From an uncultured Synergistales bacterium (lineage in GTDB: Bacteria > Synergistota > Synergistia > Synergistales > Aminobacteriaceae), in NCBI GenBank assembly GCA_905233565.1, contig CAJOCL010000012.1:1-61530 (forward strand): a DNA stretch of 61,530 bases, read 5' to 3'. Made by a program: the position numbers and the translations under genes. Below the pieces are notes generated by a model. That model searched no databases, had not been told where the DNA came from, and saw only the letters and a list, made by a program, of their open reading frames with translations. This document shows positions 1 through 61,530 of the stretch, piece by piece (positions within the stretch are counted from its first letter, which is position 1; every line of letters starts with the position of its first letter).

Positions 1-99
1 GTTTTACAGGATAGAGGCTGTGTAAACCAGCCCCAGCGAATAAGGCTCTACAGAGCAAACTTCTCTGAAAGCTCTCGACTTTAGTCGAGAGTTGTTTAC
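1..99 (+). mobile_element. Right end of an IS200/IS605-type TnpB element (partial)
   Basis: Only the 3' part of the element is in the window; its tnpB, if any, lies to the left. Positions 72-91 form a perfect 8-bp stem with a TTTA loop, preceded by GAAAGC (68-72) and followed by GTTGTTTAC, ending at 99. This matches the right ends of the two full elements in this window (GGAAGC, hairpin, then a segment ending GTTCAC). The upstream part (15-60) contains further short stems, as expected for the 3' half of a TnpB-associated omega/re RNA. The end at 99 is inferred by alignment with the other copies. Confidence 0.75.
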
Positions 100-54955: not shown

Positions 54956-57900
54956 TTATTTACGCTTTGAAAAAATCACGAACAGCGCAAGAGCCGTGAA
55001 AATTCCTGAAAATCCGTTACAGCCTGAATTTGCAGGGCCAACACCGTTGTAACTGCCGTCATCATCAGCGTAATCATCATCGTTATAATTCTCTGATGTG
55101 TTACTTTCCTGATTGCTGCCTGAATTATTGCTGTCAGTGCTGCCGTCATTAACCCTGTTTGAAAGAGGAATGCTGAAAAATCCGTCCTCTGTCGTTATTT
55201 CGAGCCTTAAATCATCGCCGTTCTTTATGTTCGAATCTGAAAGGGTGAAAACGGCCTCATACGTGTTATCATCAGGCATAACGTAATAAGTATCGCTGTC
55301 AATGACAACTCCTTCATCACCGCTGACATATTGGACGATCTCAAAAAGAGCGTTTGAAAACTCAAAATCACCGACTGCCTTAACTTCGAGGGTTATCTCC
55401 GTGTCGTCGCTGTCAACGCTGGCGATTGAATATACTCTGCTTGCGTCCTGATATTCGTATTCGTCAGTATCAGTGTCAGTGTCGGCAGCAGCAAAGAGGC
55501 TCGCCTTGACATTTGATTTTTTGACTTTTGCTTTTGCCTCGAAACGTTTAGGCCCCGTGTTCGCTCCCGGCTGTATGGACGGCGAAATGACGAACATTGC
55601 ACAGCCCGTGTTATTACCGCCCGGAATATTTTTACTCCATGCCTCATGGACTTCTGAAATCTCGTTGTCCGGGTCAATCTCAGCCATTAACAAATACTGA
55701 CCGTGATTTATAGTTGCAGGAATTTTGAAATTAAAGTTAGCATATGTCTTGTTTCCCTCACTGCCCTGTTTCCAGCCGTCAAGAGTAATGACAGCTTCGC
55801 CGATTTTCTTGGCCTTTGACGGCGTATTTCTGTCCTTGAAACGCAGATAAGACAATGTAACTTTTACGTTTTCGGCAGGCAGGAAACTAGCGTTATATAC
55901 GGGTATTGAAATCTGATAAGTTTTGCCGGGATTGAGAATTTCATTGTCAAGCATTTTCTTATCATCGCTATTGTCAAGCATTTTCTTATCATCGCTGAGG
56001 TAATACAGAGTTCCGCGCATTGAAGTTGCCCTGAGCTTGTCGGTATTTGCTGCCCATTTTCCGTTTGTGAACGAGAATTTATCAGGCAGGACGAAAGAAG
56101 GATCGGGCTTTTCATTGTAGACGCTTTCGCGCCATAAAATCGGGGCTATTCCGTTTCCGTTCGGCATTAAGTCAACGGCAAAACCGAGAGTTAAAATTCC
56201 CTGAGGATTGGAATAAACCTGCATTTCAGTATTAAAAGCAACGTCCTCAATTTTTCCCGCTAAAGGCTGCTTGAGCGTTGAAGGAGGAACAGAGGGATTT
56301 GAAAATTTAACGTTTATGGTGTCGCCCTTTGTGTAAGTCTTCGTCAAAACTTTCTTGTCAACCCAGTTTCCGCCCCACTGGTGAGTTGTCGTAACCCTTC
56401 CGCCCGTTGAGCCTAAGTCAGCCTTGCCGACCATTACGCTCACGCCGAAACCTCCGTCAATCGTTACATCTCTTGTCGTGCTGTCCCCTGAAGTTATGGA
56501 TTTATCAAGCTTCAGGCTGTATTCAAGACCCGTAGGGCTGAAAGCGCGCGTAATTCTTTCGGATAATATTGCGCTCTTTGCGTCCTTCATTTCCTGAATG
56601 TTATCAAGTTTTGTCGGATAAGAGAACAAATTACCTTCTTCGTGCCTTGCCCTGTAACCCTGATAATTTCCCTGAACAAATGAGGGCTGCTCGCTCATCG
56701 TTACGGTGTAAGACAGCTGGCCGGTTGCGCTTATGTCGACACTTCTGGGCTTGTACCATGAAGGAATCGGCTCAATCGGGTAACGCCATATATGCTGCCT
56801 GACCTGATGAAGCATTAAATTATCTGATTTCCCGGAAGTCATTGAAAGTGTCATCTGCTTAGTGTCAAGCGTTGTTTTCGTACTTTCCTCCAAATCTTTT
56901 CCGAGACGGTGAATATTTCCCGTAACCTGAACGCTGAAACGCGGATTAAATTTCGCGTCATTCGTAGGCAGTAAATCAACGCCCAATGACCACGCTGCAG
57001 CTATATCAGTTTTCATTTCATAAGTTGAAGTGAAGGCCGATGAGATGTCCTGCTTGTCCTGAGTTGTCGTACTCCGCGTGTAATTTACCGTTGTGTCTGG
57101 AACAAAACTTATATTGACCAGTGAAGGCTCTTTGCTTTCATTCCAAGGGACGGGGATATAATCGACATGATAGGGCGGTGAGGGGACTATAGCCGTGAAG
57201 ACTTTCTGATTATCGACGATCCAGTGAATGGGATTTTTGAGCAGGATTCCCGTTTTCGTGAAATCTCCTGCGGCAAGTCCGATCGTTATATTATTATCTC
57301 TCTTCATCTCGAAGATCAGATAATTGTTGAAACTTGATAACGTTCCCTTTTCGTTGAATTTCGGCTGTAAAATTCTGACCCATGCACCGTTTCCGGGTAC
57401 CTCGTAAGAAGCAAAACTTACGGCAATATCTTCACAGGTCTTGTTGGTTTCAGTATTTGAAACTCCCGTGAAAGTCCCTGAAATAATCTGAAATGCCTGA
57501 TCCGTGAATGTATTTTTTTTCAGCGATGATCTGTAAGTGAATATATCAGGGTTAAGATTCCTGTCTTTTACATCAGCGTGGAAAGAGCCGAATTTTGCAG
57601 CCGTTCGGACAAAAGAGGGTTTCAGTTTGTTGCTGAAGTTAAAGATTTCAACCTGTGAACTCCAATCACCGCGCTGCATTTCGTTTTTGCCGATATGCAG
57701 ACGAAAGAATTTTGAAGCCCAAGTTATTGCAAGCACTGCAAGTTCTGATTTGCCGTCTCCGTCAATATCTGCAGGGGCGATTCTCATGTCTCCGATTGAT
57801 GTTACGTCAGCGTACCCCTGTCCCACAAAATAACGCGTCTTCCATGAGCTGTAACTTTTTGTCGTAGAAGTTTTTCTGATTTTGTTTGATTTAGCTGTGC

Positions 57901-58957
57901 TGTCGTACTTGATAATCTCAACATGAAGAGCACCGATCATATTTTTCAGATCGTCATGAATATCTTTAGGCAGGCTTTCATTAAATCCCTTGTAGACTGC
58001 TGCAATCTCGTCAAGCCCGTCACCGTCAAAATCGGCCATAGCTATATCACCGGCAGCCTTATAAAACCATTCATCAAGTATTTTATAACGATTGTGCAGG
58101 CTTGCGGTGTATAATCTTTCGTCCTTGACAGTCTGAACGAAATTAAGTTTTCCTGCGGGTGTCCAATTCAGCGAATATACGTTCAAATCGTAGCCCCATT
58201 TGTTTTTATTGTTTGCAATTACAGCGATGTCGCGCCTTCCCGAACCCGTGAAATTCCCGGCGGCTATGCGCATGAGGTGCCCTGAATCTGACGTACGGTC
58301 AAGATTTATTGACGCTTCATACTTGAAATCTTTGACATCACCGCTCATGCTGAAGAGGTCGATTCTAAAATTGCCGCCGCTCAAAGGGCTATCCCAAGTC
58401 GTTGCGAATGCGAAAATTTCGCGGGGGCTGCCCGGTATGAATATGCCGCTTTTTATTGCGACGACATCAGGATAATTTAACGCGCTGAAGGGCTGTGATT
58501 TTGCGGTGAAGGCGCGTTTTGATGATGTCTTTGAGCCGTCATTCGATACGACATCGGCGTAATACTCAAAAATCCGCTCCATGTTGTTCATCGGCTTTGA
58601 GTAAACGAAAGACGGAGGAAGGGTTGAAGTCTGATAATTCGTTGAGACCGCTACGGGTAAACCGCCCCTGAACCAGCCTGCATTTGTTCCGAAATTGTCA
58701 TCATTTTTGAGCCTGAATGATGATGTCCCGCCGTCAGGACTTATGGTGTATACGTTGTAGCTTGAGACCATTGCATTTGATTCAATGCGGTTGTGAATAA
58801 TCAGCAATGAATCTTTTTTGACGGCTGCACTTTTCCCGGTTACGGCGAAAACGTCATCAACTGACTTTAACGGCCTTCCGCCCAGCTGTGAGGAATGTGC
58901 AGAGCATGAAAGAATCATCACTAATACAAACGATATTAAGTATGAAAACTTTTTCAA
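54956..58957 (-). CDS. Large exported FG-GAP/CARDB protein with Synergist-CTERM tail
   Basis: A 1333-residue surface protein. Signal peptide about 1-23. FG-GAP/VCBS-type Ca-binding loops DFDGDGLDE (near 305) and DIDGDGKSE (near 395) suggest a beta-propeller in the first half. A CARDB-like domain lies at about 1010-1115 (VPVYNASFLPAENVKVTLSY ... GGNNTG). The tail is an acidic linker, then NSGCNG, a hydrophobic segment and KRK, the Synergist-CTERM signal. TTG start with AGGAGG 8 bases upstream. A paralogous fragment lies at 60532-61430. Function unknown; adhesion or ligand binding is possible. Confidence 0.82.
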   Translation of the reverse strand: MKKFSYLISFVLVMILSCSAHSSQLGGRPLKSVDDVFAVTGKSAAVKKDSLLIIHNRIESNAMVSSYNVYTISPDGGTSSFRLKNDDNFGTNAGWFRGGLPVAVSTNYQTSTLPPSFVYSKPMNNMERIFEYYADVVSNDGSKTSSKRAFTAKSQPFSALNYPDVVAIKSGIFIPGSPREIFAFATTWDSPLSGGNFRIDLFSMSGDVKDFKYEASINLDRTSDSGHLMRIAAGNFTGSGRRDIAVIANNKNKWGYDLNVYSLNWTPAGKLNFVQTVKDERLYTASLHNRYKILDEWFYKAAGDIAMADFDGDGLDEIAAVYKGFNESLPKDIHDDLKNMIGALHVEIIKYDSTAKSNKIRKTSTTKSYSSWKTRYFVGQGYADVTSIGDMRIAPADIDGDGKSELAVLAITWASKFFRLHIGKNEMQRGDWSSQVEIFNFSNKLKPSFVRTAAKFGSFHADVKDRNLNPDIFTYRSSLKKNTFTDQAFQIISGTFTGVSNTETNKTCEDIAVSFASYEVPGNGAWVRILQPKFNEKGTLSSFNNYLIFEMKRDNNITIGLAAGDFTKTGILLKNPIHWIVDNQKVFTAIVPSPPYHVDYIPVPWNESKEPSLVNISFVPDTTVNYTRSTTTQDKQDISSAFTSTYEMKTDIAAAWSLGVDLLPTNDAKFNPRFSVQVTGNIHRLGKDLEESTKTTLDTKQMTLSMTSGKSDNLMLHQVRQHIWRYPIEPIPSWYKPRSVDISATGQLSYTVTMSEQPSFVQGNYQGYRARHEEGNLFSYPTKLDNIQEMKDAKSAILSERITRAFSPTGLEYSLKLDKSITSGDSTTRDVTIDGGFGVSVMVGKADLGSTGGRVTTTHQWGGNWVDKKVLTKTYTKGDTINVKFSNPSVPPSTLKQPLAGKIEDVAFNTEMQVYSNPQGILTLGFAVDLMPNGNGIAPILWRESVYNEKPDPSFVLPDKFSFTNGKWAANTDKLRATSMRGTLYYLSDDKKMLDNSDDKKMLDNEILNPGKTYQISIPVYNASFLPAENVKVTLSYLRFKDRNTPSKAKKIGEAVITLDGWKQGSEGNKTYANFNFKIPATINHGQYLLMAEIDPDNEISEVHEAWSKNIPGGNNTGCAMFVISPSIQPGANTGPKRFEAKAKVKKSNVKASLFAAADTDTDTDEYEYQDASRVYSIASVDSDDTEITLEVKAVGDFEFSNALFEIVQYVSGDEGVVIDSDTYYVMPDDNTYEAVFTLSDSNIKNGDDLRLEITTEDGFFSIPLSNRVNDGSTDSNNSGSNQESNTSENYNDDDYADDDGSYNGVGPANSGCNGFSGIFTALALFVIFSKRK
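55943..55996 (-). repeat. 27-bp tandem duplication inside the FG-GAP gene
   Basis: Two identical 27-base units (55943-55969 and 55970-55996) encode a repeated SDDKKMLDN. The paralogue at 60532-61430 has only one equivalent unit, so this is a recent in-frame duplication. Confidence 0.93.
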
Positions 58958-59028: not shown

Positions 59029-59062
59029 AAAAAAAAAGCCCCTGCAAAAAACTGCAGGGGTA
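59029..59062 (-). terminator. Terminator just outside TnpB element 2
   Basis: On the minus strand CCCCTGCA and TGCAGGGG form an 8-bp stem with a six-base loop, followed by ten T. It begins 3 bases beyond the right end of element 2. It is presumably the terminator of the interrupted paralogue, although that gene's 3' coding part is missing between them. Confidence 0.82.
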
Positions 59063-59065
59063 AGT

Positions 59066-60531
59066 GAACCATCACACGACTAAAGTCGCGTGCTTCCAGC
59101 CGTTTTAATAAGCCGGACTGACTTTCCACTATACGGTCTAAACTCAGATTTCACAGCTTACGCCGTAAGCTCCGCATTGAGACTAATTAGCGTGGATAAG
59201 GTGCAGGTGGTTCTCTTGGCACACGAAGGAACTTTTGCCTCCATGTCCAACCTTGACGTTACCGACAAGGATTTTAGAATTTCCCGGATAAAATATCTTG
59301 CTCCTATGTTATAGGATGCCGATAAATCGCAGTGATATTTCTTTCCGCTTTTGAATTTACACAAACTGTAATTTTTCTCATCACGCTCTACTTCGCCGCT
59401 CCCGTCGTAAGCCAATTTTGACGTTCCCCATGCGCAAATCCGGCTGATTCTTTTGCCAAGTCTGTGCATTTTGTTTGCTGCTATTGCTTGAACGGAGCGT
59501 GATTTCCAAAGATGTAATCTTTGTTTCTTGCTCCCACGTTTCTTGCCGTTTAAGTCTAAATACTCAAAAATTACAACATCGGCATTATAAGAAATCACCG
59601 TGTCTATTATAAATTGCGCGGTTAAATTAGCGATGTTCGTGTTAATTCCTTTGGCTCTTGCCCATAATTTCGGAGTTCGTTTTGCTCCGTGCTGCTGCGC
59701 TTTTTTTATGCGGTTAATAGCGTGGTTCAGAGAGTCTTTTTCTCTTGATAAATCTAAAAATTTTCTACCAATGACAGTGCCGTCTGACTTCATTGCGCTG
59801 CATACACAATCGTTATTTATTCCTAAATCTACTCCGATTATTACCTGTTTTTCTATGGATTTTTCTTGAATTTTCACCTCCTCCTCAAACGCAAAATCCA
59901 AATACCAGTTTTTACCGCGTTTTCGTAATGTCGGAACACATTCTTTGCGCGTCCGGCAATGTTTTTGAATATAATTAACATCAGTATTTTTTAATTTTAT
60001 GTTAACCCAATCCCAAGTATTTTTTATGAAAACTTTTAGGCAAGCTGTGTTTGTACCTGTTCTAACAAAACAATTATCGCGGTACATTGCAGGAAAAATT
60101 TTTCCGGCTTTAGGTGTACCCGGCTCTTTCCCTTTTTGCGTTTTAAGCCAGTTCTCATAATTGCTCTTGTAAGAACTTACTTTACCTACAGCTTCAGTAA
60201 TCGCTGCTCTTCGTAAATAACTTGGGAATTTGTAAAAATCTTTCTCAAAATTATATTTAGGATTAGGATTAGAAGCTGTTTTATGAGAAAAAACTTCCAC
60301 AGTTCTTTGTTGTTCTAATGAGGATTTTATTTTTGAAATATGAGTCCATTCCGCCAACACTACTTTGATAAAAAATTTCACAGCCAGCCTATACTGCTCA
60401 ACAGTATTTTTGAAAGCTCCATGAGAAATAGAAATTTTTACTTTATATGTTGACAAAATTTTCATGTTTATAATTCTAACATAAGGCCGACTAACTCATG
60501 ACTAAAGTCACGAGTGTGCGTCGGCAATTTC
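59066..60531 (-). mobile_element. IS200/IS605-type TnpB-only element 2
   Basis: On the minus strand the left end starts at 60531 (GAAATTG...) directly after TTGAT (60532-60536), with a hairpin of 8-bp stem and TTTA loop near 60496-60515. The right end (GGAAGC, hairpin with TTTA loop near 59073-59092, then GATGGTTCAC) stops at 59066. It is 1466 bp with no target duplication or terminal inverted repeats, as usual for the family. It cuts the Synergist-CTERM paralogue. The left boundary is supported by where similarity to the paralogue at 54956-58957 stops. Confidence 0.85.
59158..60465 (-). CDS. tnpB: TnpB-type RNA-guided nuclease, degenerate zinc ribbon (element 2)
   Basis: A 435-residue TnpB with RuvC residues Asp213 (GVDLGI), Glu301 (VIFEYL) and Asp380 (CDLSASYNIGARY). 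The CPxCG zinc-ribbon pairs are missing: the region reads ICAWGTSKLAYDGSGEV then LCKFKSGKKYHCDL, a layout known in one TnpB branch. It is the same length as the TnpB of element 1 but clearly a different branch. ATG at 60465. The stop lies inside the element, about 90 bases before its right end, leaving room for the guide RNA. Confidence 0.9.
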   Translation of the reverse strand: MKILSTYKVKISISHGAFKNTVEQYRLAVKFFIKVVLAEWTHISKIKSSLEQQRTVEVFSHKTASNPNPKYNFEKDFYKFPSYLRRAAITEAVGKVSSYKSNYENWLKTQKGKEPGTPKAGKIFPAMYRDNCFVRTGTNTACLKVFIKNTWDWVNIKLKNTDVNYIQKHCRTRKECVPTLRKRGKNWYLDFAFEEEVKIQEKSIEKQVIIGVDLGINNDCVCSAMKSDGTVIGRKFLDLSREKDSLNHAINRIKKAQQHGAKRTPKLWARAKGINTNIANLTAQFIIDTVISYNADVVIFEYLDLNGKKRGSKKQRLHLWKSRSVQAIAANKMHRLGKRISRICAWGTSKLAYDGSGEVERDEKNYSLCKFKSGKKYHCDLSASYNIGARYFIREILKSLSVTSRLDMEAKVPSCAKRTTCTLSTLISLNAELTA

Positions 60532-61430
60532 ATCAAATAAGTATCGCTGTCGAGGAGATAGGCTGCTTCATCGCCGTTGTCTTTGCTGACGTACTGGACG
60601 ACATCAAATTGGGCGTTGGTGTAATCAAAGTTCCCTATTGCCGTTACTTCAAGTGTTACGCCGTAATCACCGCTTGTGTCTTTAGCTTTTCTGTAAACGT
60701 CTGCGGGCGGGTAATAATTTCCGTCAGCGTCAGCACCGGCAACAACTGCGCCTGCGTCAGCCTTCTTTGCCTTTACGTCAAAACTTGTCGGGGTTTTGGG
60801 CGTAACGTTTGCCGGCTGAACGGCTACCATTGAATAACCTGTGTTGTTTCCGCCGGGAACATCTTTGCTCCATTCCTCGTGAACTTCATCGATCTTGTTC
60901 TCCGGGTCAATACGGGCTATCAGCATGTACTGCCCTGTCTCCAAATTTGAAGGGACGTTCCATGTAAAATTAGCGTAGGTCTTGTTTGTTTCCCTTCCGC
61001 TTGTCCATGCAGTGAGGCTTATGTCAGCACTTCCGATAGGCGTTGCGCCCGAAAAATCGGCAATTTTTCCCTTTTCCCTGTAACGCTTGTAAGCAAGGCT
61101 GACTTTTACATTTGATGCAGGGAGGAAACTGGCGTTATATACGGGGACTGAAACGGTGTAACTTTTTCCCGGTGCCAGTACGTCATTGTCGAGTACCTTG
61201 TCTTTGCTCTGGTTGTCATAATATAGAGTGCCGCGCATTTCCGTTGCACTCAGCATGTCGGGATTGGGAACCCATTTTGTGTTATAGAACGAAAATTTCT
61301 TCGGCAGTACGAAAGAAGGATCGGGCTTTTCCGCGTAAATGCTGCTGCGCCAGAGAAGGGGAGCCGCGCTCATTCCGTTAGGCTGAAGGTCTACGGCAAA
61401 ACCGAGAGTCATTAAGCCCTGCGGATTCAT
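60532..61430 (-). pseudogene. Fragment of a second FG-GAP/CARDB Synergist-CTERM protein gene, cut by TnpB elements
   Basis: About 300 codons align with residues 917-1225 of the protein at 54956-58957: NPQGLMTLGFAVDLQPNG, the CARDB-like VPVYNASFLPASNVKVSLAY, HEEWSKDVPGGNNTG and LDSDTYL. The fragment begins exactly at TTCAT (61426-61430), the target of element 3, and ends exactly at TTGAT, the target of element 2. Its ATG at 61430 is part of the target site and has no ribosome site. The C-terminal part with the sorting tail is absent, and the N-terminal part should lie beyond the window. The reading frame within the fragment is intact, so the breaks look recent. Confidence 0.88.
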
Positions 61431-61530
61431 GAAATTTGCGCAAGGATACTCGCGGCTTTAGCCGTGAGAGGAATTGCGCTTACATTCTCCTTTCTTTCGC
61501 TATATTGATATTTTTTTAGCGAGATATGAT
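61431..61530 (+). mobile_element. Left end of TnpB-type element 3 (partial)
   Basis: Starts after TTCAT (61426-61430) with GAAATTTGCGCAAG and a hairpin of 8-bp stem and TTTA loop at 61449-61468, matching the left ends of elements 1 (TGCGCAAG, CTC) and 2 (GAAATT, hairpin with TTTA). Orientation is plus, so its gene should lie to the right of the window. No coding start was recognised in the 100 bases available. Confidence 0.8.

What the first reader, a model, noticed from the sequence alone, without database searches (positions are those of the whole stretch)
59029..61480. A Synergist-CTERM gene bounded exactly by two TnpB elements, with its 3' part missing
Similarity to the neighbouring paralogue begins at the TTCAT of element 3 and ends at the TTGAT of element 2, with an intact frame between. 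On the far side of element 2 there is no coding sequence, only 3 bases and then a terminator, so about 110 codons including the sorting tail are gone. Recombination between two same-type elements in direct orientation, deleting what lay between, would explain a hybrid with intact ends. The 5' part should lie just past element 3.
Basis: partly seen in the sequence, partly recalled or inferred. Interest (0 to 1): 0.6.

Follow-up and report, generated by a model that had tools for sequence, protein, structure and literature searches.

The report
Dead surface gene split by transposons
A gene for a large surface protein in a rumen-type Synergistaceae bacterium has been broken into pieces by two unrelated TnpB transposons and two smaller mutations; its front half was found on another piece of the assembly exactly where predicted, and the whole is an ordinary decaying gene.

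Summary
Window 60532-61430 (-) is an in-frame fragment of a FG-GAP/CARDB surface-protein gene. It lies between the left ends of two TnpB elements: element 2 (59064-60531, -) after TTGAT and element 3 (61431->contig end, +) after TTCAT. The main prediction is confirmed. The 5' part lies on contig C9 (C9:1153-3642, -), directly after an element-3-family right end finishing GTTTAC. Joining the flanks gives ...DMQFY|MNPQG..., in frame with the paralogue and with no base lost or duplicated. Synteny agrees: relative G040 has recN next to trxA-gpx.

The 5' part carries two more lesions (a deletion of about 90 codons and a 1-bp frameshift), so this is a multi-hit pseudogene. The missing ~105 C-terminal codons were not found elsewhere in the assembly.

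Elements 2 and 3 belong to different families (TnpBs 25% identical over 120 aa) and point in opposite directions. Any recombination must therefore have involved a second element-2 copy that no longer exists. This is possible but unproven. A simple deletion beside the element, or insertion into an already truncated gene, explains the 3' loss equally well. All these mechanisms are known, so interest is low.

The parts
60532..61430 (-). 3'-ward fragment (about 299 codons) of an interrupted FG-GAP/CARDB surface-protein gene; corresponds to paralogue residues ~917-1228
   Evidence: open frame; 57% identity to paralogue; tblastn 917-1224, E 6e-103; sub-threshold CARDB match 21.9 bits
61426..61430 (+). 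TTCAT target preceding element 3
   Evidence: TTCAT also precedes the other left ends of this family listed, except the C15 copy
61431..61530 (+). left end of element 3 (IS200/IS605-like, TnpB element), cut by the contig end; its right part is on contig C9:1-1152
   Evidence: 94-99% identical left ends on C16, C3, C31 (two), C13; hairpin z -3.3; C13 and C2 carry both this left end and the C9-type right end
60532..60536 (-). TTGAT target preceding element 2
   Evidence: TTGAT precedes the left end in other family members
59064..60531 (-). element 2, a complete TnpB-only IS200/IS605-like element, 1468 bp, left end 60531, right end ...GGTTCAC at 59064
59158..60465 (-). tnpB of element 2 (435 aa), single copy in this genome; 92% identical relative in G025
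   Evidence: NF040570 guided_TnpB 68.7 bits, below its cut-off of 100
59039..59060 (-). intrinsic terminator, presumably of the interrupted gene, starting 3 nt after the right end of element 2
   Evidence: DNA fold z -4.9
54956..58957 (-). intact tandem paralogue (1333 aa), reference for the missing parts
1..99 (+). right end of another element-3-family copy at the left end of the window
   Evidence: 100% identity to C9:1054-1152

Best explanation
This is a decaying duplicate of a surface-protein gene with at least four lesions. (1) Element 3, a TnpB element without its own TnpA, inserted 3' of TTCAT in the middle of the gene, with no target duplication, and split it; the assembly broke in that repeated element (shown). 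(2) The 5' part, on contig C9, lost about 90 codons between short repeats and also one base (shown in the assembly). (3) Element 2, an unrelated TnpB element in the opposite orientation, inserted 3' of TTGAT near the 3' end (shown by its conserved ends). (4) About 105 codons between the right end of element 2 and the terminator were deleted (loss shown, mechanism inferred). The likeliest routes for step 4 are an ordinary deletion beside the element after insertion, or a deletion that preceded insertion. Recombination between two direct copies of element 2 is a live alternative.
For: The 5' part is on C9 after GTTTAC. The two halves meet at paralogue residues 915/917 with no gap or overlap, and the joined frame reads ...NTDMQFY|MNPQGLMTLGF. 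Relative G040 has dcd-nadK-recN directly followed by trxA-gpx-queA-spoIID, and G003 has cupin-trxA-gpx. The same genes sit at the C12 right side and the C9 left side. C13 and C2 copies link the C12-type left end to the C9-type right end. Frame breaks on C9 lie at paralogue residues 500/591 and about 870; the former lies where C9 reads GTACTTTCACC, fitting both sides of the deletion. The tail was not found elsewhere.
Against: The genome is a draft with scaffold gaps (Ns on C9 and C13). The C9 frameshift and the C9-C12 join are not verified by reads, and about 160 bp of element 3 between the contigs is unread. For step 4, the deletion ends within a few bases of the right end of element 2, which a random deletion has no reason to do.
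Confidence: 0.85

Rival explanations
1. One reading: two copies of element 2, in the same orientation, had inserted at TTGAT in the gene and at TTGAT just before the terminator. Homologous recombination between them deleted the tail and left one hybrid element.
For: Both ends of element 2 are bona fide ends, yet the flanks do not continue each other. It explains the exact junction without coincidence. Same-family elements can lie close together: C31 has two left ends about 3.2 kb apart, and G032:C29 has a right-end remnant abutting a left end. Recombination between identical ISs is an established cause of such deletions (PMC11708052).
Against: No second tnpB of this family exists in the genome. 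No trace of hybridity is testable. It needs two insertions of a rare element within about 330 bp in the same orientation.
Confidence: 0.3
2. Element 2 inserted once, into a gene already shortened by a deletion that fused it to its terminator (empty site TTGAT|TTACCCC).
For: Only one insertion is needed. The empty-site reading ...DTYLIYP resembles the paralogue's DTYYVMP for a few residues. The same gene shows an element-independent repeat-mediated deletion on C9.
Against: The insertion has to fall by chance within about 8 bp of the deletion junction. The DTYLIYP similarity is too short to carry weight.
Confidence: 0.25
3. Assembly artefact at the right end of element 2: the tail exists but was dropped or misjoined because the right end resembles other copies.
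For: Right ends of this family also occur on C2 and C7. Element 3 copies demonstrably broke the assembly at several contig ends.
Against: Those right ends are only 74-84% identical to that of element 2. The window has no Ns. The tail was not found elsewhere, although about 3.5% of the genome may be missing.
Confidence: 0.07

Closest known systems
IS200/IS605 family, ISDra2 type (Deinococcus radiodurans)
   Same: TnpB; subterminal hairpins; left end directly 3' of TTGAT (element 2); no target duplication, seen as the exact join for element 3. ISDra2 properties from PMC8612924 and PMC2806898.
   Different: No TnpA in the elements seen whole and no Y1 transposase found in the genome. Element 3 uses TTCAT. 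TnpB of element 2 scores under NCBIfam's guided_TnpB cut-off.
IS-associated deletions (recombination between ISs, adjacent deletions)
   Same: An intact IS with non-matching flanks and loss of neighbouring DNA, as described for E. coli long-term lines (PMC11708052)
   Different: Those examples involve ISs of other families that make target duplications; IS200/IS605 elements make none, so that diagnostic is not available here
Synergist_CTERM surface proteins (TIGR04564)
   Same: The paralogue and relatives end in a GC motif, a hydrophobic stretch and a basic end
   Different: The fragment has lost this tail; the paralogue itself gives no TIGR04564 match and the best relative is just below cut-off

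Membership tests
IS200/IS605 (TnpB-only) elements - element 2 | TnpB protein | tested here: inconclusive
   NF040570 68.7 bits, E 5.5e-19, below the cut-off of 100; no Pfam hit
IS200/IS605 (TnpB-only) elements - element 2 | imperfect subterminal hairpins at both ends | tested here: met
   left end z -4.0; right end hairpin GCGACTTTAGTCGT weaker, z -1.7; conserved in relatives
IS200/IS605 (TnpB-only) elements - element 2 | fixed target motif left of the element | tested here: met
   TTGAT in the window and in L182, L185, L186, L178, L189; one exception, L184
IS200/IS605 (TnpB-only) elements - element 2 | no target duplication, flanks continue each other | tested here: not met
   right flank is TTA plus a terminator, not the gene's tail; the clean G025:C2 copy does restore a frame (read). 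Attributed to later or earlier deletion, so this bears on the locus rather than on the element
IS200/IS605 elements - element 3 | TnpB protein | tested here: met
   C9 part: NF040570 141 bits (cut-off 100), TIGR01766 44 bits (cut-off 32), PF01385 84 bits
IS200/IS605 elements - element 3 | insertion 3' of a fixed motif without target duplication | tested here: met
   TTCAT before all listed left ends but the C15 copy; exact in-frame join of C12 and C9 flanks
IS200/IS605, autonomous | Y1 TnpA transposase | tested here: not met
   no PF01797 match in the genome
TnpB omega/reRNA | guide RNA from the right end | tested here: inconclusive
   right end conserved over about 215 nt, but no Rfam match
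Synergist_CTERM (TIGR04564) | C-terminal sorting tail above cut-off | tested here: not met
   absent from the fragment; paralogue tail 0 hits, G025 tail 20.2 of 22.5 bits

The most novel reading that the evidence does not exclude
The loss of the 3' part was driven by the element itself: an aberrant peel-and-paste excision, or TnpB cleavage of the donor joint followed by faulty repair, left the element intact and deleted the DNA beyond its right end. That would be an adjacent-deletion mode for IS200/IS605 elements.
Probability: 0.06. Interest if true: 0.45.

Novelty: new member of a known kind. Interest (0 to 1): 0.17.

Why it matters
It gives a clean in-genome check of insertion without target duplication for an undescribed TTCAT-targeting TnpB element family, and it closes an assembly gap (C12 to C9). 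It shows how a duplicated surface-protein gene decays through several independent hits. It opens no new biological question by itself.

Tried and rejected
Recombination between elements 2 and 3: rejected, because they are different families (25% over 120 aa) in opposite orientation. Translocation or inversion of the tail to another contig: a search with the paralogue's last 132 residues found only the paralogue itself, this fragment's own end, and weak hits in other genes of the genome. C7 carries an element-2-family right end, but its flank is intergenic, a terminator, and then what reads by eye like an aminoacyl-tRNA synthetase gene on the minus strand, not the tail. Natural end at LDSDTYL: rejected by all full-length homologues. 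Other right-end contig starts as the continuation of element 3 (C14, C8, window start): their flanks do not resemble the gene. A viral-contig scan for the element 2 TnpB found none. Rfam found no RNA family. No paper in the library mentions Synergist-CTERM.

Full report
Setting. The window is the whole of contig C12 of a 34-contig draft genome, 96.5% complete. Its closest named relatives are Synergistaceae / uncultured Fretibacterium metagenome-assembled genomes, several from ruminants. Both window ends lie in copies of one repeated TnpB element: a right end at 1-99 and a left end at 61431-61530.

Observation. On the minus strand, 61430->60532 is open and aligns to the paralogue next door (54956-58957) from residue 917 to about 1228, at 57% identity. 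The similarity starts at the TTCAT next to the left end of element 3 (+ strand) and ends at the TTGAT next to the left end of element 2 (- strand). Element 2 spans 60531->59064, 1468 bp. Its right end finishes TTCAC, followed by TTA and the terminator 59060-59039. Alignment with family members from other genomes supports both ends of element 2. What it did not notice is that elements 2 and 3 are of different families (TnpBs 25% identical over 120 aa) and point away from each other.

The 5' part. A search of the genome with the paralogue found residues 16-924, apart from a gap at 501-590, on contig C9, minus strand, just inside its left end. C9 starts inside a tnpB of the element 3 family and reads through its right end...CTCTCGACTTTAGTCGAGAGTTGTTTAC at 1152. 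Copies on C13 and C2 carry this right end together with the C12-type left end, so both belong to one element family. Joining the two flanks gives ...GPIQNVTYNTDMQFY|MNPQGLMTLGF..., in frame and without loss or duplication; by tblastn the halves meet at residues 915 and 917. Synteny agrees: in G040, dcd-nadK-recN is directly followed by trxA-gpx-queA-spoIID, and in G003 cupin is directly followed by trxA-gpx. In this genome those genes lie on C12 and C9 respectively.

The gene is dead several times over. On C9 the frame changes twice: about 90 codons are missing between paralogue residues 500 and 591, and a second shift lies near residue 870. C9 there reads GTACTTTCACC, which fits both sides of the first deletion, so it probably arose between short repeats (my reading). 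The second shift fits the loss of one A in a run of A, which in a draft could also be a sequence error. Together with element 3 and the loss of the 3' part, this is an old pseudogene beside an intact tandem paralogue.

The 3' part. Homologues continue for about 90-120 residues and end in a GC motif, a hydrophobic stretch and basic residues. A search with the paralogue's last 132 residues found no stray copy of the tail. The element 2 tnpB is single-copy here, and no Y1 transposase was found in the genome. Three routes remain. (a) Deletion beside the already inserted element. (b) Insertion into an already truncated gene. Route (c) explains the exact right junction best but needs a second copy that has left no trace. 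Routes (a) and (b) need fewer insertions but a small coincidence. The sequence cannot decide between them. [quoted passage not shown] Insertion 3' of TTGAT without target duplication is the known behaviour of ISDra2 (PMC8612924, PMC2806898).

Verdict. The proposed recombination is possible but unproven. The phenomenon is ordinary transposon-driven gene decay. The confidence of 0.85 is for the multi-lesion pseudogene with the C12-C9 join; for the 3' loss alone I give about 0.3 to recombination, 0.25 to prior deletion, and most of the remainder to a later adjacent deletion.

Noticed in passing
window 1-99 and 61431-61530; ends of C3, C8, C9, C14, C15, C16, C31: Copies of the element 3 family (left or right ends) sit at or near many contig ends, so this repeat appears to be what fragments the assembly; the window is bounded by it on both sides.
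   Followed up: partly
window 59158-60465; L182: TnpB of element 2 is 92% identical to a copy in G025, whereas recN of the same two genomes is 68% identical: a sign of horizontal transfer of the element.
   Followed up: no
L184 about 1545-1570: In G032 an element 2 left end is preceded by TTGAT plus the last 16 nt of a right end (TCGTGTGAGGCTTCAC): a remnant or a right-end/left-end junction.
   Followed up: no
L025 6735-6960: A right-end-only remnant of the element 2 family, without tnpB, lies in or beside what looks by eye like a membrane O-acyltransferase (MBOAT-like) gene on contig C2.
   Followed up: no
L186 1246-1589: A short internally deleted copy of element 2 (left 59 nt and right 211 nt, no tnpB), MITE-like, in G025.
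   Followed up: no
genome G000: No Y1 TnpA was found although element 3 copies are nearly identical at their ends; the transposase is either lost, missing from the draft, or too divergent for PF01797.
   Followed up: partly
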